Assembly: GCA_000309945.1 (NCBI GenBank)
Contig: CM001633.1
Location: 270,723 to 334,722 of the forward strand
Direction: 5' to 3'
Source: Leptolyngbyaceae cyanobacterium JSC-12
GTDB lineage: Bacteria; Cyanobacteriota; Cyanobacteriia; Leptolyngbyales; Leptolyngbyaceae
DNA: 64,000 nucleotides
Position numbers and translations under genes: made by a program
Shown: positions 21,760 through 33,249 of the stretch, piece after piece
How the letters are laid out: each line of letters opens with the position of its first letter
Position numbering within the stretch: the first letter of the stretch is position 1
The notes under the pieces: model-generated
The model's input: the letters and a program-made list of their open reading frames with translations, nothing else
The model's database searches: none
Told to the model about the DNA's origin: nothing

Positions 21760-24700
21760 CTAGCTGAAAACAAAGTTACTATCAGTTAGGCTATCAAATT
21801 TGACGTTTGACAGGATTGCCAACACTTCTTTAGTGTTAGAGACTTGAATCAGGGTGTCTTTGGCGATCGCGCCTGTTCCTTGAACTACGCTCACCTGCCC
21901 CAGAGTTAAGCCACCAACCAACTTGATCACATCTTCATGAACGTTGAAGTCGGTAATGGTATCAGTGCCTTCACCTGCCGCCAGCACAAAGACATCCTTT
22001 CCACATCCACCTGTGAGAACATCTGCGCCGAAACCGCCTACAAGGGTATCATTGCCTGCACCACCAATCAACGTGTCGTTACCGGCTCCTCCCCGTAATA
22101 AGTCATCCCCGCTTAACCCATTCACGTAGTCATCTCCGCCTTGAGCATTGATGACATCATTCGAGTGTTCAAATCCTTGAATATGATTATTCAAGTCATT
22201 TAAGAAGGTAACAGAATTACGGTTGAAAATCCGGTCAAAATTCCATTCAGCATTGAAGACATCAAAACTATCTGCGATTTGGGTTTGTCCATTAAATAAG
22301 ATGTTACCCAGGTTAACTGATGCACCTGTTGCACGGGTGAGATTATCCAACTGATCTAGTTGGAAGTTTTTCAGCACAACCTTTGTGTTTTTAACTCCAT
22401 CAAACGTGAGTTCAAGATTACTGCCTACTTGAGTTAATAATAAGTTCCGAGCAGTCAGTCCTTCTCCTTCGAGCTTGAGCGTATCAACTTCTGCAATAAC
22501 TGGGGCAGTGGGGTTAACTCCTCGTCCAACTCCACCAAAGTTTGCAATTGTCCGGGTGCCATCGCCCTGCTCAATGATGAACTGTTTTTGCCCTCCTAAA
22601 CCAGATGGGGTGGGGTTAAATTCAAACACACCTGTTGTGCCGCTGACTTCGTTAGTAACAACCAGAAGCGCAACTCCATTTGGGCTTTGGCTGGCAGGAA
22701 TGAACGTGAGACCTTCAGGGCTGATATCGCCTGGGCTGGTGGTATATTCCAAAAATTTTGGCTTTTGAGCATTGGTTACGTCATAAACCATAACCCCACC
22801 CGTCCGCTCTAATCCAATGAAAGCGTAAACTCGTTCGTCTACAACTCCAATCACAACTCCTTCCGGTTCGGGACCTTTGTTGTCACTACGAGTATCAAAC
22901 GTGGCTGCATTTCCGTTGGAGTTAAACAGCGTGGGAATGGCGGCAGCAGTGATGCGTTCAAACTGATCGCCACTATCGAAGACAAGATTACCACTAGTAT
23001 CGCGAATAGAGAAAGACCGACTACCAAATACATGAATCTGGTCGAAGTCACCATCGCCATCGATGTCGCCAGTTGCATTAGTGACTGTTAATCGACCAAG
23101 AATGGCGTTGTTTTTGAGTGCTGCCGCATTGGGAAACGTGGTTGGGTCGAGGATGTATCGACTGTCACCGACTCGGATTTCTTCGGTAAACCCGGTGTAA
23201 TCGCGAGCATCCCCTTCATTGGCAGTGATCAGATAGGTTTTGCCATCTAACCCAGTAAACTGGGCGATCGCATCTGGTTGATACATCCCAAACACGGGTT
23301 GATTCTGAATGTTGATTCTGCCAGTGTTATTCGCGCCATCGCGATCGCTGGCATCGAGTCCATTGCTTTGATTAAATCGGATAATACCAAGTTTAATCGT
23401 GTCGGGTACGGTCGGTTTGGAGAGAGTTCCATCGCCATTCAGGGCACTGCCACCCACTCCAAAATCGTTATCATTGATCACAGCAATGGTGTTGGCGTCA
23501 ATCAGTGCTAGACCTTCTATTTTTTCAATGCCAGTATAACCAATGGCTGCAGCGTTCACGGTAAGTCGTTTACTGACGGGGGCAATATTAGCAGTCCGCA
23601 ATTCTGCAACCGTTAATTGCTCTAGAGTTTTGCCAGACGGAATACTGGTTAGGTTTGCCGGATTGTTGATGTTGGTAGCACCGTTTAGATTGATTTCGTA
23701 GATCAATTTATTAGCATCACTAGTGGAGCGATCATCCCGCTCAATTACCAAGAATTTGCCATTGCCCAAGGAGACCGCATCACCAATTTTGTCAGTGCGA
23801 GCATTACCGCTGCCACTGATACTATCGAGGATGTAAAGGTATTCACCCGTGACCGTGTGAGTGACAATATCAAATTCCAGAATCCGCAAGTTACGAGAGT
23901 TGCGAGAGGTTGTATCTCCGGGAACATCTGGGTTGTCGATCGCACTTTGAATAAAGGCGTAGAGTTTTGTCCCTTCTAATGCCAGCGCTTCAAAACCTCG
24001 GTTAACCCGGCGTTGCGCATACACAGCCGGAAATACGGGTGTGCCAAATTCACCTGTAGCAGTGGGTGCACCCTGGGGAATAAAGCGGTTAATCAAAGTG
24101 CCGCTGCGATCAAACTGGTAGATTGCCGGACGGTATTCATCGCTCAGCCAAAATGTACCATCGGGAGCTACAACGATGGCTTCAAAATCACCGCCCAATG
24201 GATCGTTGTTTAAGGGCTTGCCAAATACATCGACCGGTACTTCGTCTGTATATGCGGTGCCTGCTGCACCTGCTTGCACATTTGGCAATCCGGTCAGCGG
24301 AGTGCCATCTTGCCGCTTTAGCCCAATTTGTTGAACAATGTGAATCTTTCCTGTTTGTTGATTGAGTTCAAACCGGATGAGTTGGGGTTGAAAATCGGGC
24401 AGAGGAAACGGACGATTATTACCCGTGGGTTCAGCGTTGGGACCACGGTCAGTGTGGGTAATGAATTTCAGGTTACCGTTGGCCGCCACTCCTTCGAAAA
24501 ATAAACCGGAGAAACCACCTAAAAGAATTTCCTGCCCGCCTGCTGTTATACCCAGAGATGGGAGATCAGTGAATTCGTAGTTGGTGATGGTAGGAAGCCC
24601 CTTGCTGTGGTCTTTGAGACCCAGTGGTAAGATGCTAGTTACTCTGGCCGTGGCAATATCGACGACAGCGATCGCGTTGTTTTCTTGCAACGTCACCCAG

Positions 24701-25374
24701 GCTGTTTTACCATCCGCTGAAACCGTGATATACTCCGGCTCCAAATCTTGAGCAACCGTAGCATTGGGACCAAAAATGCGAACACCCCGTGCTTGCAAAT
24801 CGGCTTTTTGGCTGTTAAAGCTTTCAAAGCCCGCAGTAGCCACAGTTGCACCAGCTACACCATTTGTCAGGTCAATAATGCTCACTGAGCCAACGGGATC
24901 TACTGAATCTGGTCGATTGTAGCTTGATGGTTCTCCTTCGTTTGCCACCAAAATCTTCTTGCCATCCGGTGTAAACGTCAACATATCAGGCAGTGCACCA
25001 ACCGTCACCTGTCCCAAAAAGTTGCTGTTGGCATCAAAGAAAACAACGGTTCCTGGGTCGGTTGCGGGAGTCGCCTGCACAGCAACAGCAACTAAACCAT
25101 TACTGATAGCAACGCTGTTGGCTCCCCCCCCATAAGCAGATACATCCAGCCTTCTTACCAAAGTCGGATTACTGGGATTGCTAAGATCCAGAACGTCCAG
25201 AAGGGTGCTACCGGAAATAACGAATAATCGCTTAGTCGCAGAGTCATAAGCTGAGATTTCGGCCCCTGATCCCGTAAATCCACCAATTTTCCTGAGAATG
25301 CTTTCACTATCAGATTTAACAACAACTGAACTGAAATCTTGGGGTGCTGAAGGATTTAAGCTAAACGATGGCAT
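21760..25374 (-). CDS. Secreted RTX protein with choice-of-anchor-I and phytase-like esterase domains
   Basis: About 1204 residues from ATG 25374, which has an AGGT-type ribosome site and precedes [11 protein letters not shown]; an ATG 60 bp upstream is less likely. Residues 20-270 and about 690-930 look like the two halves of a beta-propeller of the choice-of-anchor-I type ([43 protein letters not shown]). Inserted between them is an esterase-like phytase domain ([45 protein letters not shown]). The C-terminus carries RTX repeats ([20 protein letters not shown]) and a terminal domain suited to type I secretion. It would act extracellularly, perhaps on phosphate esters; the activity is inferred from the domain name. 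Confidence 0.85.
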
Positions 25375-25434
25375 AGTGATTACCTGGCTAACCGATAAGC
25401 AAATAAATAAGCACAACAAACCTGGCGTGACCAA

Positions 25435-25843
25435 GGCTCGAAGATTGCGAGCGCGATCGCCGATGAAATGAAATGTTACAATTTACTAGACGAAGTTCAT
25501 CGAAAACACGTCATGGTATCCGTCATGCAAACCCTTCTTCGTCATGCAGATCCTTAACCAGCCTAACCAGAACTTAAATGAACTTGCGGTAAGCTGATGC
25601 GTGTTTTCTCTGATTGTTTCATCATCAATTGCAACACCTCAACCAAACTATCACTGTCATCTAGGTAGCTCTAAGTGATGCAGAAAACATTAGGGGTAAA
25701 GATTGTATAAAGAACTGCAGAATCACCAAGTATAATTACGTTCTTCACAGGTCAAGCAGTTCTTATCTCATCCAACTTTGACGTGAGTGCTCTCCACGCT
25801 AGGCAACAGAGCTAAAACCTGCTACACTAAAAAAGTTTTGTAG
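25435..25843. other. 400-bp gap before tRNA-Cys
   Basis: No gene or clear repeat was found. It carries the promoter regions of the leftward RTX gene and of the tRNA. TTGACG at about 25780 and TACACT at about 25822 are visible, but the spacing is too long for them to form one promoter. Confidence 0.5.
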
Positions 25844-25915
25844 GGCGGCATAGCCAAGTGGTAAGGCAAGGGTCTGCAAAACCCTCATCCCCCAGTTCGA
25901 ATCTGGGTGCCGCCT
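25844..25915 (+). tRNA. trnC: tRNA-Cys (GCA)
   Basis: The acceptor stem GGCGGCA pairs with TGCCGCC. A D-arm (GCC...GGC), an anticodon arm GGGTCTGCAAAACCC with anticodon GCA, and a T-arm (CCCAG-TTCGAAT-CTGGG) follow in order. The discriminator base is T, typical of tRNA-Cys. CCA is not encoded. Confidence 0.96.
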
Positions 25916-25980
25916 TTTAGTGATAGGCATCCCTGGGTTGCAGTACCTCTTTGACATCTCAAGCTCGTTCTCCCACACCT

Positions 25981-26013
25981 CAGCTCATGGGTTACAGCAG
26001 CTCATGGGTTACA
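25981..26013. repeat. 17-bp tandem duplication after tRNA-Cys
   Basis: CAGCTCATGGGTTACA occurs at 25981-25996 and again at 25998-26013, a two-copy tandem with one intervening G. It lies between the tRNA and an acetyltransferase relic. Confidence 0.85.
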
Positions 26014-26027
26014 ACTGGGAGATGGCA

Positions 26028-26486
26028 CTACCCAAGTTCAAAGGTGGTGACACCAAACAGACGATTTACTCCGTATCCAGCCAGTGTATTGTTCTGTAAA
26101 ATACCCAAAGCAATACAATTGGGTTGATTGATCCAACATCGCAGAAACTGAGCGCGATCGCCCGGAAAGAATGGCTGATCGTAAGCTGCAATGATTTCAA
26201 AGGGAATCTTAGATAATTGAACAATTCCTGGATGACTTATTGATACAACTTCAGCAACGCTTTCATAGCGAATAGTATGATAAGCAAACCGAAATCCAGA
26301 TTTTTGGTAATTCTTCTGTTGAGACAGCACACCGTCTAGACCAATATTTCGACCTGATAAAGTATCTAATGCAGTATTCCAAAAAGGAAGGTCAAAACTA
26401 CTAAAGAACCCAAACAACCGAGACAACCGCTCGTTACTTTCAGCATTTAGTCGAAATTTAGCAAACGTCAACTTTTTTGCATCCAC
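26028..26486 (-). pseudogene. GNAT acetyltransferase remnant
   Basis: The middle of this frame resembles the central and later part of a GNAT-family enzyme: FWNTALDTLSGRNIGLDGV, then NYQKSGFRFAYHTIRYE, then FLRCWINQPNCIALGILQ and NTLAGYGV. The N-terminal substrate and acetyl-CoA P-loop region before it is replaced by about 35 unrelated residues, and the usual C-terminus after LAGYGV is replaced by a short unrelated tail. The fragment abuts the left end of the IS copy at 26505, so IS-associated rearrangement probably removed the rest. It is unlikely to be functional. Confidence 0.65.
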
Positions 26487-26504
26487 ATCTGACTGAATGA
26501 ACTA

Positions 26505-27960
26505 CACGACTTGGCAAGTTACCCAGAAAGGAAAAAGATAAGCAGAAAATGTAGGAGACGTTAGCCGTAGCCGTATCATGCTGCCCTTTGTCGCTGTGCC
26601 ATCGACGATTGCTCAAGAGTTTGGGAAATATCGAGACCTGTTCTGCCGAGGCGCAGGCTTTGAGCAGGTGAGTCGCTATGTGACCGGATTGCTGTTGAGT
26701 GAGAACAAAACCTTGCAAGGGATTGCCGGACAATGGGTAGCAGGTGGGGAGGTCGGCGGACGAAGAGCGATGCACGCAGCGGTGTTTGAGGCGGGCTGGA
26801 GGAGTTCAGAGTTAATGTCCCATCATCGTGCTGTGATAGCCAAAGAGCATCAGGGGCGAGGGCGAGAAGTCATCAGTCTGGATTGGACGCTCAGCCATCA
26901 CGATTGGGGCAAGCAGATCTTTGGGGTGAAGCGATCCTATGATTATGTGGAACATCGGATGAGTTGCTTTCAAACGGTGGTGACGGCGACGATTGCGAAC
27001 CGCCACCTAATTGATGGGATTGACGTGGTGGTGCAGTTTCCAGATTTTTCAGTGGCAGAACGGGAGTATCTGAAGGTGACGGCAAAATCCCACTATGACG
27101 ATTTAGACCAAGTGCGAGAACGACTGATTGAGATGTTGCATTATCACAAGAATCGATTGGAGTATCGCAAACGCACCGAGATTGCCGTCGAGATTGTGCG
27201 CCAAGTGGAAGCGGAAGGACAATTTCCCACCGCCGATTATGCGTTTGACAATGGGGTGTTGACCGTTGAGTTAACCACCATGATTGAGTCCGCAGGAAAA
27301 CACTGGGTGAGTGAAGTTGAAAGTTCTCGCAACATCTTGTGGAATGACCAATGGCAACGGGTAGATGCGATTGGTTTAGAACTCAGAATCCATCACCCAG
27401 AGAGCTTTCGCCCGATTCAAGTCACTTGCCGCAACGGCGAAACGAAACCGATTTGGGCATTTACCAAAGTCGTGCGCCTCAAGAAGTTTGGACGCAAGCG
27501 ATTGGTCATCGTCCACGAGCAAGCAGATTTACAAGACCCACCTCGCTTCCTGCTCACCGATGCGTTGCATTGGGAAAGTGGGCGAGTCATGCAGACTTGG
27601 AGTTATCGATGGTCCTGCGAGGTCTTTCATGAGGTGAGCAAACAGCACACCGGGCTAGAGTCGGCTCAGGTGCGGAACGAGGAAGCGGTCAACCGTCACT
27701 TCCGTCTTAGTTGCGTGGCGCAGTCGATTCTGCAACGGACTGCCTGTTCTGGCGCACAATCTGAACGATTTGAGTTTGCTCAAGGCAAGCAAACGGTGGG
27801 ACAGAAGCTCTATACCCTCACTCGTCAAGCCTTTGATGATTTGCTGCAATTCATTGTGACGCGATGTTCTCACGGACATACAAATGAACAGATTTTACAA
27901 GCTCTCCTCCCCAGTTGATTGGCGATCGTTTTTTCTACTTCGGTAACTTGCCAAGTTGTG
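26505..27960 (+). mobile_element. IS4/IS701-type insertion sequence, copy 1
   Basis: A 1456-bp element bounded by 19-bp inverted repeats with one mismatch: CACGACTTGGCAAGTTACC at 26505-26523 and the complement of CACAACTTGGCAAGTTACC at 27942-27960. It is almost identical to copy 2 at 49483-50938; one silent C/T difference was noticed in the transposase gene. No target duplication flanks this copy (left ...TGAACTA, right ATAGCTG...), and both neighbours are truncated genes. Confidence 0.9.
26578..27918 (+). CDS. DDE transposase of IS copy 1
   Basis: A 446-residue DDE transposase of the IS4/IS701 supergroup. Likely catalytic acidic residues are in VISLDWTLSHHDWGK, in ADYAFDNGVLTV and in the C-terminal SYRWSCEVFHEVSKQHTGLE helix (E after the YxxR-like motif). 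It binds the element's inverted repeats and catalyses cut-and-paste transposition. The frame is intact and the protein is identical in sequence to the one in copy 2, so it may still be active. Confidence 0.9.
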   Translation: MLPFVAVPSTIAQEFGKYRDLFCRGAGFEQVSRYVTGLLLSENKTLQGIAGQWVAGGEVGGRRAMHAAVFEAGWRSSELMSHHRAVIAKEHQGRGREVISLDWTLSHHDWGKQIFGVKRSYDYVEHRMSCFQTVVTATIANRHLIDGIDVVVQFPDFSVAEREYLKVTAKSHYDDLDQVRERLIEMLHYHKNRLEYRKRTEIAVEIVRQVEAEGQFPTADYAFDNGVLTVELTTMIESAGKHWVSEVESSRNILWNDQWQRVDAIGLELRIHHPESFRPIQVTCRNGETKPIWAFTKVVRLKKFGRKRLVIVHEQADLQDPPRFLLTDALHWESGRVMQTWSYRWSCEVFHEVSKQHTGLESAQVRNEEAVNRHFRLSCVAQSILQRTACSGAQSERFEFAQGKQTVGQKLYTLTRQAFDDLLQFIVTRCSHGHTNEQILQALLPS

Positions 27961-28726
27961 ATAGCTGGTATAAGCAAATGCTGATAATTCTGTATTGCCA
28001 TACTGCCAAGACAGATCAACCTGCTGACAAATCGTCAACGGTAATAGCAAGGGACACCCATTGTAGGCAGCCCCAAACATGCTAGACAGAATTCGCATTT
28101 TTGCCTTAGCCCAGTCATCTGTCATCAGCGGCAGCTCAACTAATACTGAAGGCAAGGTTTCTGCCAATAGGGTATGAGTTCTACCCAGGGCTGCCCCCAC
28201 ATCTTCAGGGGTAGGGTCGCTCGGCAAATCAATACCCAATTCACGCAGAATCATTAGGGCTGTATCAATGCCTGAACGAAGTTGATTTTGGGCAACACAA
28301 GCTTGAATCTTAGCCTCATAGATGGGAACTCGATCCAAAACCGTTCAGGATATCAGCCAGTTGCAGGGCGATTGTCAGGACTTCTACTAAGGGTAATGAC
28401 TGTTGCTGTAGGTAGGCGCCTAAGTCCATGCCCCCCCAATCTTCCATTACCAGGGCATAACCACTACTCAATGATTCCAGACTTAAGGGGTGAACAATCC
28501 CAGGAATGGGAAGATTCTTGGCAATAGCATACTGATTGCGAAATTGCACCAATTCGCCAAAGCTAGGGTATTCATGCCGCAATACCTTAATCACCACGGG
28601 TTGCTGGGTTGCGGTTTGGATCGCTCGATAGACTGCTGTGCGACTCCCTGCGTAGATTTGCTCGGTAACCGTATAGCCAGCAAGTTTGGGGAATGTCTGC
28701 TGGGAAGTTGCTGCTGAATATGTCAT
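27961..28726 (-). pseudogene. Remnant of a trifunctional Ser/Thr kinase-AAA-histidine kinase gene
   Basis: From ATG 28726 about 130 residues match the start of the large cyanobacterial signalling proteins with a Ser/Thr kinase at the front: YTVTEQIYAGSRTAVYRAI, then VVIKVLRHEYP and YALVMEDWGG. The frame then breaks near 28330 and a second frame continues with the TPR-like middle of the same protein family (EAKIQACVAQNQLRSGIDTA, then LTICQQVDLSWQYGNTELSA). The kinase catalytic half and AAA domain, several hundred residues, are deleted. The right end of IS copy 1 then cuts off everything downstream. Full-length relatives exceed 1,700 residues, so this is a deeply decayed relic. Confidence 0.75.
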
Positions 28727-28834
28727 CGCTTCGCCTGCGAAACCTAATCTTTATCTATCTAGAAGATTTATTTTGATAGAGTTCCCAAAGATTAAGCGAT
28801 CGCACCAACAGCCTTACGTGTCTACAGATTGCCT

Positions 28835-29685
28835 GGTAGTGTGCTAGACATGGGGATCGATAAGGTCAAACTACCCGTCCAAATTCATAGCGATTGATGA
28901 ACAACCCAATCACAATGTCATGTAGCCGTTCGGACTTGGAGAAGCAGATCGTCTTGCGAGCTAATCGCTTAATTCGGGTTCGTAACGTCAAATGCTTGCG
29001 CTCAATTTTCTGTGTATTCTGTTTACCAACCACATGCTGGTCTTCATCGAACAAGCGAGCATAGGCTCCCCATCCATCGGTATAAAAGGTTTGAACCCCA
29101 AACGGTGCTAACAATGCTTTTAACTCGACCAACGCTTGGTCTTGATGGTCTGCCAGCACATACGCCAATACCTGCCCCGTCTGATGGTCAATGGCATGCC
29201 ACAGCCAACGTTCCTGTTTTTTACACCGGACAAAGCTCCACATCTCGTCTGCTTCGGCTTCTTCGATGTGTTTGGCAATAGTCACAGCTGTTGGCTCCAG
29301 TTGTTCCAACAATGATCGATTGATCTGTTCAAGATGACGATCTTTTTTTAATTCTTCAATGACAGTAGTCGGACTAATTCTGAGTACTCGTGCAGTATCG
29401 CGAATTCCGCTGCCATTGAGTGCCATCTCACAAATCTGTTGTTTCACATCAGGTAAGTAACCTCGGTAGGAATACTCCAGAACAAAGCTATGGCGAGTGC
29501 ATTCGGAATTCCGACATTTATATCGTTGTTTGCCTTCAGCCGTCTTGCCATGTTTGACGATGTTAGTGCTGTTGCAAGTGGGACAGTGTACAGGTTCGAG
29601 TACCATCGTAGTCGTTTTGAACTACCCTAACTGATTTGGTAATTCTATTTACCCTGATCCTTAGCCCCATGTCTAGAACATTACC
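28835..29685 (-). mobile_element. IS1-family element, copy A (inverted pair)
   Basis: An 851-bp element ending in inverted repeats beginning GGTAGTGTGCTAGACATGGG (28835) and GGTAATGTTCTAGACATGGG (complement, ending 29685). It is identical in length, and in the stretches compared in sequence, to copy B in the opposite orientation. The left flank AGATTGCCT and right flank ACTATTGA are not repeats of each other but are reverse complements of the corresponding flanks of copy B. Confidence 0.92.
28866..29606 (-). CDS. IS1-family transposase (copy A)
   Basis: A 246-residue single-frame transposase, whereas enteric IS1 fuses InsA and InsB by frameshift. An N-terminal zinc ribbon (CPTCNSTNIVKHGKTA, then C) and HTH precede a DDE core: D in EADEMWSFV, D in FYTDGWGAYARL and E in KIERKHLTLRTRIKRL, with the typical RKTICFSKS segment. 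It is intact and identical to the protein of copy B. Confidence 0.93.
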   Translation of the reverse strand: MVLEPVHCPTCNSTNIVKHGKTAEGKQRYKCRNSECTRHSFVLEYSYRGYLPDVKQQICEMALNGSGIRDTARVLRISPTTVIEELKKDRHLEQINRSLLEQLEPTAVTIAKHIEEAEADEMWSFVRCKKQERWLWHAIDHQTGQVLAYVLADHQDQALVELKALLAPFGVQTFYTDGWGAYARLFDEDQHVVGKQNTQKIERKHLTLRTRIKRLARKTICFSKSERLHDIVIGLFINRYEFGRVV

Positions 29686-29835
29686 ACTATTGATTAGACT
29701 TAAAAAGAGACAAAAATGAGAATTAAAGACTCAACTCAATAATGGGTCGTGTTCTAGGCTTGGGGTAGCTTGCAAAAACGTACCTTTGAAGTAAAGGCGG
29801 AAATCAATCATCTTGTTGTACTGCTAAGGCAATCT

Positions 29836-30686
29836 GGTAATGTTCTAGACATGGGGCTAAGGATCAGGGTAAATAGAATTACCAAATCAGTTAGGGTAGT
29901 TCAAAACGACTACGATGGTACTCGAACCTGTACACTGTCCCACTTGCAACAGCACTAACATCGTCAAACATGGCAAGACGGCTGAAGGCAAACAACGATA
30001 TAAATGTCGGAATTCCGAATGCACTCGCCATAGCTTTGTTCTGGAGTATTCCTACCGAGGTTACTTACCTGATGTGAAACAACAGATTTGTGAGATGGCA
30101 CTCAATGGCAGCGGAATTCGCGATACTGCACGAGTACTCAGAATTAGTCCGACTACTGTCATTGAAGAATTAAAAAAAGATCGTCATCTTGAACAGATCA
30201 ATCGATCATTGTTGGAACAACTGGAGCCAACAGCTGTGACTATTGCCAAACACATCGAAGAAGCCGAAGCAGACGAGATGTGGAGCTTTGTCCGGTGTAA
30301 AAAACAGGAACGTTGGCTGTGGCATGCCATTGACCATCAGACGGGGCAGGTATTGGCGTATGTGCTGGCAGACCATCAAGACCAAGCGTTGGTCGAGTTA
30401 AAAGCATTGTTAGCACCGTTTGGGGTTCAAACCTTTTATACCGATGGATGGGGAGCCTATGCTCGCTTGTTCGATGAAGACCAGCATGTGGTTGGTAAAC
30501 AGAATACACAGAAAATTGAGCGCAAGCATTTGACGTTACGAACCCGAATTAAGCGATTAGCTCGCAAGACGATCTGCTTCTCCAAGTCCGAACGGCTACA
30601 TGACATTGTGATTGGGTTGTTCATCAATCGCTATGAATTTGGACGGGTAGTTTGACCTTATCGATCCCCATGTCTAGCACACTACC
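29836..30686 (+). mobile_element. IS1-family element, copy B (inverted pair)
   Basis: An 851-bp element identical in layout to copy A but in the opposite orientation, 150 bp away. Left flank AGGCAATCT (29827-29835) is the exact 9-bp reverse complement of copy A's left flank. Right flank TCAATAGT (30687-30694) is the 8-bp reverse complement of copy A's right flank. This pattern is what intramolecular replicative transposition with inversion leaves behind. Confidence 0.92.
29915..30655 (+). CDS. IS1-family transposase (copy B)
   Basis: The same 246-residue single-frame IS1 transposase as in copy A, with identical protein sequence: zinc ribbon, HTH and DDE residues all present. The near identity of the two copies implies a recent event. 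Ribosome-site evidence is weak, as is usual for transposase genes. Confidence 0.93.
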   Translation: MVLEPVHCPTCNSTNIVKHGKTAEGKQRYKCRNSECTRHSFVLEYSYRGYLPDVKQQICEMALNGSGIRDTARVLRISPTTVIEELKKDRHLEQINRSLLEQLEPTAVTIAKHIEEAEADEMWSFVRCKKQERWLWHAIDHQTGQVLAYVLADHQDQALVELKALLAPFGVQTFYTDGWGAYARLFDEDQHVVGKQNTQKIERKHLTLRTRIKRLARKTICFSKSERLHDIVIGLFINRYEFGRVV

Positions 30687-30862
30687 TCAATAGTCTTATA
30701 TAAGATTAAGAGACTAAAGTTTTTACTTCACATCGATCGCTGATTTCCTTTCAATGTTTCGTTGCTGGTTGAAATGCCCATTTTCCTCATTAAGATTATT
30801 CTGCGCGGTTAAAATACATGGATGACCTGTGGTTGTGAGAATTTAGAACTAACTGTAAACAG

Positions 30863-31930
30863 ATGAACAGGCAAGCAGCGATTGACTGGCTAAAGCAACG
30901 TCCCTGGTTAATTGTGCCAGTGCTGGGGGTTGTCCCTTTGGTTGGTATTCCACTCATGAATCAAGTTTCGTCTACCTCAGGAACAGTGACCGTTTCTCCC
31001 TCACCCCTGTTACCGACGGCGGTTGTCACGTTGCCAACGCTGGCTTCAACATCCCTTCCAGCTTTGCAAGCTACCCCCAAGCCATCTTCCTCACCTCAGA
31101 GTTCTCAAAAGACGGCTGCTAAAGCTATGCAGAGTCCTAAACCAGCACAAGCAGTGAATGCGCAGGCGGTGCAATCAGCAATCAATTTATCGGTGGATGC
31201 GGCGATTCAGATGCGCGTCTTGATCCATGCAGCAGCAAGTCGTTTATCGATCAGCACATCTGGTGGTGGTGGGGTGTTTGATGTGCAGTCCAATCGGTTA
31301 CTGTATGAGCTTCCGGCAAGGTCTGGTTATGAGATGCAGGCAGATGGCAGCACGATTCTGTTAGGTTCGCTCCGGCTCCCCTCATTAATTTGGATTGATC
31401 CATCTCCAACCGGGATAACCTATGTGGGCGATCGCGGTTATCGGGGGCGGCTATTAATTGCATCTAGTGAAAGTCGGCTCTGGGTAGTGAATTACGTGAA
31501 TCTGCAGCAGTATTTGTATAGCGTGGTTGGCAGTGAAGTATCCCCGAGTTGGCCAATGGAAGCTTTGAAAGCCCAGGCAGTGGCTGCCCGGTCTTATGCA
31601 TTGACTTACCATCTCAAGCCAGTAAAACGAGATTTATATGATTTAGGCTCGGATGAGTACTACCAGGTTTATAAAGGGATTGAGAGTGAGGCAGCTCGGA
31701 CTCGCCAAGCTGTTAATAGCACCAGTGGCGAATTCGTAAGCTACCGGGGCGGTGTGGTGGAATCTCTCTATGCTGCGACGGATGATATTGTCATGGAAGC
31801 GTTTCAAGGTCGTGGAATGAGTCAGATTGGGGCATTGGGATTAGCAGAACAGGGGCAAACTTATCGCCAAATTTTAGGTGCCTATTACGCTGGAACCGGG
31901 ATTGCACAAATTCAAATGGATATTGAATAA
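30863..31930 (+). CDS. SpoIID/LytB-domain protein, membrane anchored
   Basis: A 355-residue protein. An N-terminal transmembrane segment (WLIVPVLGVVPLVGIPL, 15-31) is followed by a Ser/Thr/Pro-rich linker to about residue 95 and a SpoIID/LytB domain. The latter shows YLYSVVGSEVSPSWPMEALKAQAVAARSYAL, the family hallmark, and ends with GRGMSQIGALGLAEQGQTYRQIL and YYAGT. SpoIID relatives are peptidoglycan lytic or amidase-enhancing enzymes of the envelope. The periplasmic location fits the single anchor. The gene lies between the IS1 pair and the Xer locus, in regions rich in AGTCTTAA-like motifs on both sides. Confidence 0.88.
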   Translation: MNRQAAIDWLKQRPWLIVPVLGVVPLVGIPLMNQVSSTSGTVTVSPSPLLPTAVVTLPTLASTSLPALQATPKPSSSPQSSQKTAAKAMQSPKPAQAVNAQAVQSAINLSVDAAIQMRVLIHAAASRLSISTSGGGGVFDVQSNRLLYELPARSGYEMQADGSTILLGSLRLPSLIWIDPSPTGITYVGDRGYRGRLLIASSESRLWVVNYVNLQQYLYSVVGSEVSPSWPMEALKAQAVAARSYALTYHLKPVKRDLYDLGSDEYYQVYKGIESEAARTRQAVNSTSGEFVSYRGGVVESLYAATDDIVMEAFQGRGMSQIGALGLAEQGQTYRQILGAYYAGTGIAQIQMDIE

Positions 31931-32053
31931 AGCACAAACTCTTCTTACTGTTTGATGCAAACGGAATACTGTCTATCACTCCTTTAGTCTGATGCCCCTC
32001 CAGGAAGCATCGTTATAACCACATGGGAAGCGTGGCAAAAGGCTGATTTATCA

Positions 32054-32105
32054 AAGTCTTGGATTCAAAGAATGATCGCGCGATCGTTCTTTAAATCCAA
32101 GACTT
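32054..32105. repeat. 52-bp near-perfect palindrome
   Basis: Two 26-base arms around a GATCGC|GCGATC centre (AAGTCTTGGATT... and ...AATCCAAGACTT) differ at only two positions. The RNA form would pair as a long hairpin. It lies 123 bp after the SpoIID-like gene and could be a terminator without a T-run, a cruciform, or part of the recombination region downstream. Confidence 0.85.
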
Positions 32106-32216
32106 CCGACTGCTTGCGGTTTGAGTCTTAAGTTAGATTTCAATACTTATATTTAGACTCAAAACAAGACTTATTTAAGACAATAAGACTGCAGTTCGTC
32201 TCTCCATCTTGATTTA

Positions 32217-32252
32217 AGACTTAAAAGTAGACTTAAAGTGAGACTTAAATGA
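32217..32252 (+). repeat. Three 12-bp iterons (AGACTTAA core)
   Basis: AGACTTAA occurs at 32217, 32229 and 32241 at exact 12-bp spacing (units AGACTTAAAAGT, AGACTTAAAGTG, AGACTTAAATGA). Related octamers in both orientations precede it. The phasing is suited to cooperative protein binding, though short tandem repeats of this kind also occur in cyanobacteria without known function. Confidence 0.85.
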
Positions 32253-32339
32253 GAAAGTAGGACTAGATAGATGGTATGTTTCTCAATCTGGAACTGCCAA
32301 TCCAAAATCCAAAATCGATACACGTTATCGAGGTATAGT

Positions 32340-32369
32340 AGTTGGTGATAACACTAATTATCACCAACT
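32340..32369. promoter_or_regulatory. dif-like 11-6-11 palindrome at the start of the recombinase gene
   Basis: Arms GTTGGTGATAA (32341-32351) and TTATCACCAAC (32358-32368) are perfect inverted repeats around CACTAA, extended by one further pair outside. The 28-bp 11-6-11 geometry and the inner ATAA...TTAT ends are those of Xer dif sites. It lies directly before a Xer-type gene, as difSL lies beside xerS in streptococci. The alternative is an autoregulatory operator, since it covers the position of a ribosome-binding site. Confidence 0.5.
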
Positions 32370-32370
32370 C

Positions 32371-33249
32371 ATGCATTTGGTTTCCTCTTCGACAGGCTCA
32401 AACCCACCTCTAGCAAGGATTGACAGCATTGAACAGTTTATTAATTTGTGGCTAAAAGACAAATCACCCAATACTCAGCGTGCTTATCGCAAAGATATCC
32501 AGTATTTTCTAGTGTTTTTGGGTAATAAACCTTTAGAGCAAATTATTTTGAATGATGTTCATGCTTACCTGGATGCCATGGAAGAGCAAGGCTGGGCAGA
32601 ATCTACGATTAACCGTCGGCTAGCAGTTGTCAAAAGCTTTTTGACCTTTGGCAATTCCATTGGTATGTTGCGTCTCAACGTGGGCAAAGCTGTGAGACTG
32701 AAAGACATGCCCAAACAGTTTTCCCAGCGGACTCTTACCGAAAGCCAAGTATTGATGATGATCGCTATGACACCCAACTCACGCGATCGCGCCCTGCTGC
32801 GATTTATGTATGCAGTGGGGTGTCGAGTCAGCGAATTATGCTCCTTGCGCTGGCAAGACATTACTGAAAATCCAGATGGAACCGCAACAGTACACATTTT
32901 TGGCAAAGGCAGAAAAAACCGTTGGGTGAAGTTTTCCAGCGAAACCTGGAACGAACTGAAATCTTTACGAGGAGATGCCAGAGGAGACGACCACCTATTT
33001 ACCTCGCGACAGGGAGGCGGACTCAAACCGAACCAGGTGCGCAACATTGTGAAAGCAGCAGGGCAAAGAGTCAATGCTCCCGCAACCTCGCCACACTGGC
33101 TTAGACATAGCCACGCAGGACACAGCGTACAACGCAAAGTACCACTGACCTTGCTCCAGGAAACATTAGGGCACGAATCATTGAATACGACCCGAAATTA
33201 CATTGCAGCCAATCCAAATGATAGTAGCGCTATGCACTTGCCAGTTTAA
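32371..33249 (+). CDS. Xer-type tyrosine recombinase
   Basis: A 292-residue site-specific recombinase. An N-terminal SAM-like core-binding domain (about 20-105; SPNTQRAYRKDIQYFLVFL) is followed by the catalytic domain with all conserved residues: R152 (GCRVSELCSLRW), K179 (FGKGRKNRWV), H242 and R245 (SPHWLRHSHA), H268 (LGHES) and nucleophile Y277 (TTRNYI). The length equals that of XerC/XerD/XerS. It is not flanked by phage genes. The first ATG follows a 30-bp palindrome by one base and has no separate ribosome site. A role in resolving chromosome or plasmid dimers at the adjacent palindrome is plausible; an integrase of a lost element is the alternative. Confidence 0.9.
   Translation: MHLVSSSTGSNPPLARIDSIEQFINLWLKDKSPNTQRAYRKDIQYFLVFLGNKPLEQIILNDVHAYLDAMEEQGWAESTINRRLAVVKSFLTFGNSIGMLRLNVGKAVRLKDMPKQFSQRTLTESQVLMMIAMTPNSRDRALLRFMYAVGCRVSELCSLRWQDITENPDGTATVHIFGKGRKNRWVKFSSETWNELKSLRGDARGDDHLFTSRQGGGLKPNQVRNIVKAAGQRVNAPATSPHWLRHSHAGHSVQRKVPLTLLQETLGHESLNTTRNYIAANPNDSSAMHLPV

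What the first reader, a model, noticed from the sequence alone, without database searches (positions are those of the whole stretch)
32340..33249. Candidate single-recombinase Xer/dif module in a cyanobacterium
Directly visible: a perfect 11-6-11 palindrome (arms GTTGGTGATAA and TTATCACCAAC, centre CACTAA) ends one base before the ATG of a tyrosine recombinase that has all six catalytic residues and XerC/D/S length. Known: E. coli dif has the same geometry and the same inner ATAA...TTAT; difSL and difH lie beside the genes of their single recombinases XerS and XerH. Inference: fully symmetric arms suit one recombinase binding both halves, so this may be the dimer-resolution site of the replicon and its enzyme.
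Basis: partly seen in the sequence, partly recalled or inferred. Interest (0 to 1): 0.75.

Follow-up and report, generated by a model that had tools for sequence, protein, structure and literature searches.

The report
Self-contained Xer/dif-like recombination module
A cyanobacterial chromosome carries a DNA-cutting-and-rejoining enzyme gene directly beside its own probable target site, lying opposite the predicted replication origin, which makes it a good candidate for the missing cyanobacterial system that separates accidentally joined chromosomes.

Summary
It is single-copy in the 5.53-Mb genome and in both available congeners, always beside the same gene. The arms are identical in all three although synonymous sites and the upstream DNA have diverged to saturation. 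Homologues (35-47% identity), mostly plasmid-borne, often carry a different dif-like site upstream with the same 6-7 bp spacer: score >=17 in 13/48 loci at spacer 6 and 7/48 at spacer 7, against 0-3 at other spacers. In close pairs arms are fixed (3/208) and centres vary (18/59). The site lies 18.5 kb (0.33% of the genome) from the point opposite a DnaA-box cluster beside dnaN. The only other full-length tyrosine recombinase found is an integron integrase, and no FtsK is conserved in the genus. Best reading: a single-recombinase, probably FtsK-independent Xer/dif-like module derived from a plasmid resolution family and serving the chromosome. That it is the recombinase's target is well supported; chromosome-dimer resolution is inferred. 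Published scans found no dif in cyanobacteria.

The parts
32340..32369 (.). dif-like site: perfect 12-6-12 palindrome AGTTGGTGATAA-CACTAA-TTATCACCAACT (arms 32340-32351 and 32358-32369, centre 32352-32357)
   Evidence: conserved in G001 and G002 beside the orthologue with centre CGATAA
32371..33249 (+). tyrosine recombinase, 292 aa, simple Xer-like two-domain type, catalytic R152 K179 H242 R245 H268 Y277
   Evidence: dN 0.08-0.17 with saturated dS among congeners
32334..32339 (+). TATAGT, likely -10 box abutting the palindrome; conserved in all three congeners
   Evidence: alignment; no matching -35 box was found
32101..32264 (+). cluster of (A)AGACTYA-type short repeats, partly at 12-bp period (GACT at 32218, 32230, 32242); candidate accessory or regulatory array of unknown role
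   Evidence: 10 RGACT per 250 bp, against a maximum of 6 in sixty 20-kb samples; similar arrays in G001 and G002

Best explanation
The palindrome is the target site of the adjacent recombinase. One recombinase species binds both 11-12 bp arms as a dimer. Two sites brought together, on the two halves of a dimeric chromosome, form a tetramer that exchanges strands across the 6-bp centre through Tyr277 and converts the dimer to monomers. The module belongs to a largely plasmid-borne cyanobacterial family of self-contained resolution modules (recombinase plus upstream dif-like site). In this genus it sits on the chromosome, opposite the predicted oriC. Because the site overlaps the promoter-leader of its own gene, binding probably also represses the gene. 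Shown here: anatomy, conservation, single copy, family-wide geometry, position. Inferred: binding, cleavage, FtsK-independence, dimer resolution.
For: Single copy, always beside the gene, in 3 of 3 congeners. Arms identical 24/24 while dS is saturated and the rest of the upstream region is unalignable. Forty-eight homologues under 75% identical: combined palindrome plus ACATAA-core score >=17 in 13 loci at spacer 6 and 7 at spacer 7, against 0-3 at each other spacer from 3 to 14; p<0.02 against matched background in 19 and 9 loci, against 3-6. Arms fixed and centres variable in nine orthologous pairs: 3/208 against 18/59, Fisher p about 1e-10. 102 PLSDB plasmid records carry homologues, several next to ParA or CyRepA1 genes. 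Eight DnaA boxes beside dnaN at about 3.0498 Mb; the site is 18.5 kb from the antipode, chance about 0.7%. The only other long tyrosine recombinase is an integron integrase. No PF01580 protein in G002, and none with an FtsK gamma domain hit in G000. Closest solved relatives by sequence are XerD 1a0p and XerA 4a8e and 5hxy.
Against: No replichore GC, TA or k-mer skew on the ori-site axis, so the real terminus is unknown and replication might be multi-origin, as in some cyanobacteria (PMC7198777). About 20 of the 48 homologues show no clear site, including the closest outside the genus (L005/L040, 46% identity). Most other members of the taxonomic family lack an orthologue, so the function is not universal. 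No binding or recombination data exist. The family-level score was composed after looking at the sites.
Confidence: 0.66

Rival explanations
1. A plasmid-type resolution module that entered the chromosome and still recombines, but without a chromosome-dimer role, for example a remnant of an integrated plasmid or a service to transient plasmids.
For: The family is mainly plasmid-borne and the window clade nests in it; the host genus is cyanobacterial, a group with polyploid members that may not need dimer resolution; there is no replichore skew.
Against: Kept with the same spoIID neighbour in three species under strong purifying selection; no other plasmid genes seen beside it; position opposite oriC.
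Confidence: 0.18
2. The palindrome is only an operator: the recombinase-fold protein represses its own promoter and does not recombine there.
For: The site abuts a conserved TATAGT and the ATG; similar -10-like sequences precede several homologous sites.
Against: All catalytic residues are kept; distance to the start codon varies between homologues while the 6-7 bp spacer and dif-like core are kept; in one close pair the centre differs at 4/6 against 2/80 in the flanks, which an operator would not predict.
Confidence: 0.09
3. attP-like core of an integrative element with its integrase.
For: Integrase genes often lie beside attP (general knowledge); two IS1-family copies lie 1.7 kb and 2.8 kb away.
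Against: Same chromosomal neighbour spoIID in three species; single copy with no second att-like site within 3 mismatches; no other element genes seen.
Confidence: 0.04
4. RNA hairpin or terminator in the leader.
For: Perfect 12-bp stem just before the ATG.
Against: The predicted -10 box abuts the left arm, so the transcript would lack part of the stem; arms are conserved in sequence, with no compensatory changes; the scan finds no terminator-like site; in homologues the site is not tied to the ATG.
Confidence: 0.03

Closest known systems
Archaeal XerA/dif
   Same: Single recombinase, R-K-H-R-H-Y residues, described as FtsK-independent; NF040815 hits at 163 bits; PDB 4a8e and 5hxy are among the nearest by sequence (PMC5357621).
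   Different: Below the NF040815 cut-off of 220; a plasmid-linked cyanobacterial family; in most analysed archaea dif lies 122-144 degrees from oriC, not 180 (PMC5357621).
XerS/difSL and XerH/difH
   Same: One recombinase genetically linked to its dif-like site (PMC2731167, PMC3325230).
   Different: Fully symmetric arms here; XerS profile only 55 bits against a cut-off of 267; 292 aa against about 360 (profile and chain lengths); no conserved FtsK in the genus.
XerCD/dif and XerCD/cer
   Same: 6-bp centre and inner ATAA...TTAT; cer core is 30 bp with about 180 bp of accessory DNA (PMC5357621), loosely like the repeat array here.
   Different: One recombinase, not two; XerC and XerD equivalog cut-offs missed by half; gene beside the site.
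Cre/loxP of P1
   Same: Single plasmid-borne recombinase resolving dimers at inverted arms near its own gene (general knowledge; PMC5357621 notes large plasmids carry recombinase beside site).
   Different: 13-8-13 site; no sequence relation tested.
'Cyan' subgroup of simple tyrosine recombinases (Smyshlyaev 2021, PMC8138268)
   Same: Cyanobacterial Xer-like recombinases suggested to replace Xer; possibly the same or a neighbouring group.
   Different: The section read names no target site; membership could not be tested here because the subgroup profiles are not held.

Membership tests
Xer/dif single-recombinase system | Xer-type two-domain tyrosine recombinase with all catalytic residues | tested here: met
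Xer/dif single-recombinase system | About 28-bp site: two inverted 11-bp arms around 6 bp, dif-like inner core | tested here: met
Xer/dif single-recombinase system | One site per replicon | tested here: met
   (0-3 mismatches, three genomes; two are drafts)
Xer/dif single-recombinase system | Site in the replication terminus or at the skew minimum | tested here: inconclusive
   18.5 kb from the antipode of the predicted oriC, but no skew signal
Xer/dif single-recombinase system | Recombinase binds and recombines the site and resolves dimers | not testable with these tools
   needs experiment
XerC, XerD, XerA or XerS equivalogs (NCBIfam) | Score above the curated cut-off | tested here: not met
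   170/335, 155/330, 163/220, 55/267 bits
FtsK-dependent Xer recombination | Conserved FtsK translocase with gamma domain | tested here: not met
   no PF01580 hit in G002; two ATPases in G000 without other Pfam domains
Integron integrase | TIGR02249 above cut-off | tested here: not met
   68/265 bits; by contrast the protein at G000:5491178 scores 480
'Cyan' simple YR subgroup (PMC8138268) | Match to the published subgroup profile | not testable with these tools
   profile not held

The most novel reading that the evidence does not exclude
This is a chromosomal dif of a cyanobacterium and its dedicated enzyme: a plasmid resolution module taken over as an FtsK-independent chromosome-dimer resolution system. 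The same rule (recombinase plus upstream dif-like site with 6-7 bp spacer) defines a widespread family of plasmid modules whose centre diversifies while the arms stay fixed.
Probability: 0.5. Interest if true: 0.75.

Novelty: new variant of a known kind. Interest (0 to 1): 0.62.

Why it matters
A systematic scan predicted dif in nearly all bacterial phyla but in none of the cyanobacteria (PMC3025954), and a 2019 genome paper repeats that none is predicted (PMC6416890). A concrete site with its enzyme makes the question of how, and whether, cyanobacteria resolve chromosome dimers testable. The family also gives a set of compact single-protein recombinase/site pairs with different arm sequences, possibly orthogonal, native to cyanobacterial plasmids.

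Tried and rejected
GC, TA, GC3 and coding-strand skew change-points in 60 x 20-kb samples: not above permutation. Fixed ori-site axis and k-mer polarity (k=3-8): no signal, so no KOPS-like motif can be claimed. Pure palindrome count at spacer 6 across 48 homologues: only modest enrichment (8 at p<0.05), so the dif core was added; independent E. coli XerD half-site matching at spacers 6-7 gave 17/48 against 7 and 4 for two control motifs. The first upstream scan read minus-strand loci in the wrong orientation and seemed to show the site missing in G001; corrected. The pair table compared three sites in opposite orientation; corrected. The second PF00589 protein as a rival Xer: it is an integron integrase. 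The GACT repeats as a dedicated recombination accessory array: weakened, because G002 also has them upstream of spoIID.

Full report
Observation. The palindrome is real. It lies between a TATAGT (32334-32339) and the ATG at 32371 of a 292-aa tyrosine recombinase. The protein has SAM-like and phage-integrase domains and R152, K179, H242, R245, H268, Y277. Only one other repeat in the window has perfect 12-bp arms with a short loop.

Copy number and conservation. The window is 270,723-334,722 of a 5,530,391-base single-contig genome. The 28-mer occurs once there, and once in each of the two congeners held, even with three mismatches allowed, always just upstream of the orthologue (85% and 78% identity). 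The congener records are cyanobacterial MAGs, one titled Leptolyngbyaceae. The upstream neighbour is spoIID in all three. The arms are identical; the centre is CACTAA in the window genome and CGATAA in both congeners. The conserved block runs from TATAGT through the palindrome to about CAT, while the rest of the upstream region cannot be aligned. Synonymous sites are saturated (dS 1.6 or more) and dN is 0.08-0.17. So both gene and site are under selection.

The family. A class-wide search found the recombinase family in 64 of 390 genomes at E<=1e-30. 102 plasmid records match at E<=1e-20, mainly Nostoc, Gloeothece, Calothrix, Leptolyngbya, Planktothrix and others, with a few Methylobacterium, Rubrobacter and Acinetobacter records. 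On plasmids the gene lies beside or near ParA or CyRepA1 replication genes in several cases. In the tree the window clade (100/100) sits inside this mostly plasmid-borne family on a long branch, with the recombinase of a 521-kb second contig (L005, identical in upstream sequence to L. boryana pLBX) among its near neighbours. Many rows of the tree come from draft contigs whose replicon type is unknown.

Sites of relatives. Upstream of many relatives there is a different sequence with the same architecture. Examples are AATGCAATATAA-GCGTAG-TTATATTGCATT, AGTTTGACATAA-GGCTAA-TTATGTCAAACT, AAACACAGATAA-CGTTAA-TTATCTGTGTTT and AAACAGACAAAA-TTGGCG-TTTTGTCTGTTT. In 48 homologues (less than 75% identical) a combined palindrome plus dif-core score reached 17 in 13 loci at spacer 6 and 7 at spacer 7. 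Each other spacer from 3 to 14 gave 0-3. The score was composed after the sites had been seen; an independent test with the E. coli XerD half-site gave 17/48 at p<0.05 against 7 and 4 for two control motifs, and pure palindromicity gave modest enrichment. About 20 homologues show no convincing site, among them the closest outside the genus.

Arms fixed, centre free. In nine pairs of orthologous sites the arms differ at 3/208 positions and the centre at 18/59 (Fisher p about 1e-10); four of the nine pairs come from one Nostocales plasmid group, so they are not fully independent. In one close pair (L072/L073) the centre differs at 4/6 but the flanks only at 2/80. This is what a crossover site predicts, since its centre need only match its own copy. 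It is not what a mere operator or an RNA hairpin predicts.

Position. Eight DnaA boxes (up to one mismatch, four exact) cluster at 3,049,609-3,049,970 beside dnaN, the densest cluster in the sampled 1.26 Mb. S. elongatus has its mapped oriC in that arrangement (PMC7198777, PMC3480399). The antipode is at 284.6 kb; the site is at 303.1 kb, 18.5 kb or 0.33% of the genome away (chance about 0.7%). dnaA itself is at 3.23 Mb. Against over-reading this: no GC, TA or k-mer skew marks these replichores, and cyanobacteria with irregular skew may fire several origins (PMC7198777).

Competing machinery. The genome has three PF00589 hits: this gene, an integron integrase (480 bits to TIGR02249) and a 64-aa fragment. 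PF01580 ATPases exist in G000 without other Pfam domains and none is found in G002, so FtsK-dependent activation is unlikely.

Mechanism proposed. One recombinase binds both arms; two sites synapse; strand exchange across the 6-bp centre resolves dimers; binding also occludes its own promoter. The first step (target identity) is well supported by comparison; strand exchange and dimer resolution are inferred from family knowledge. A cluster of GACTTA-type repeats upstream (10 RGACT per 250 bp; no 20-kb sample exceeds 6) recurs in the congeners. It could be an accessory array like that of cer, but in G002 it also precedes spoIID, so regulation of both genes is as likely.

Comparison with the known. 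It works like Xer/dif with one recombinase (XerA, XerS, XerH) or Cre/loxP. As a protein it misses the curated cut-offs of XerC, XerD, XerA and XerS. It may belong to the 'Cyan' subgroup named by Smyshlyaev et al. (PMC8138268), for which the section read names no site. Published dif surveys found none in cyanobacteria. I therefore call it a new variant of a known kind.

Noticed in passing
window 28866-29606 (-) and 29915-30655 (+): Two identical IS1-family transposase genes (246 aa) in inverted orientation about 300 bp apart, just upstream of spoIID.
   Followed up: no
window 32054-32105: Near-perfect 52-bp palindrome with GCGATCGC-type centre between spoIID and the recombinase; G002 has a different perfect 54-bp palindrome at the same place, probably a spoIID terminator or transient insertion.
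   Followed up: partly
window 32101-32264; L184 12430-12660; L185 upstream of the site: Dense AAGACTTA/GAGACTYA short repeats, locus-associated in three species; in G002 also upstream of spoIID. Role unknown.
   Followed up: partly
G000:C1 5,491,136-5,492,101 (L168 2137-3102): Integron integrase (TIGR02249, 480 bits) in the chromosome; recombinases of similar size and PF00589 score occur in many relatives.
   Followed up: partly
L201 (NZ_CP063797.1) 24366-32340: Tolypothrix plasmid recorded as circular carries two protelomerase genes within what looks like a large inverted duplication, suggesting a linear plasmid with hairpin ends mis-assembled as a circle.
   Followed up: no
G337:C88 (L068, L072) and G296:C2 (L060, L073): One plasmid-sized contig carries two different recombinase/site modules of this family about 53 kb apart, with different arm sequences.
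   Followed up: no
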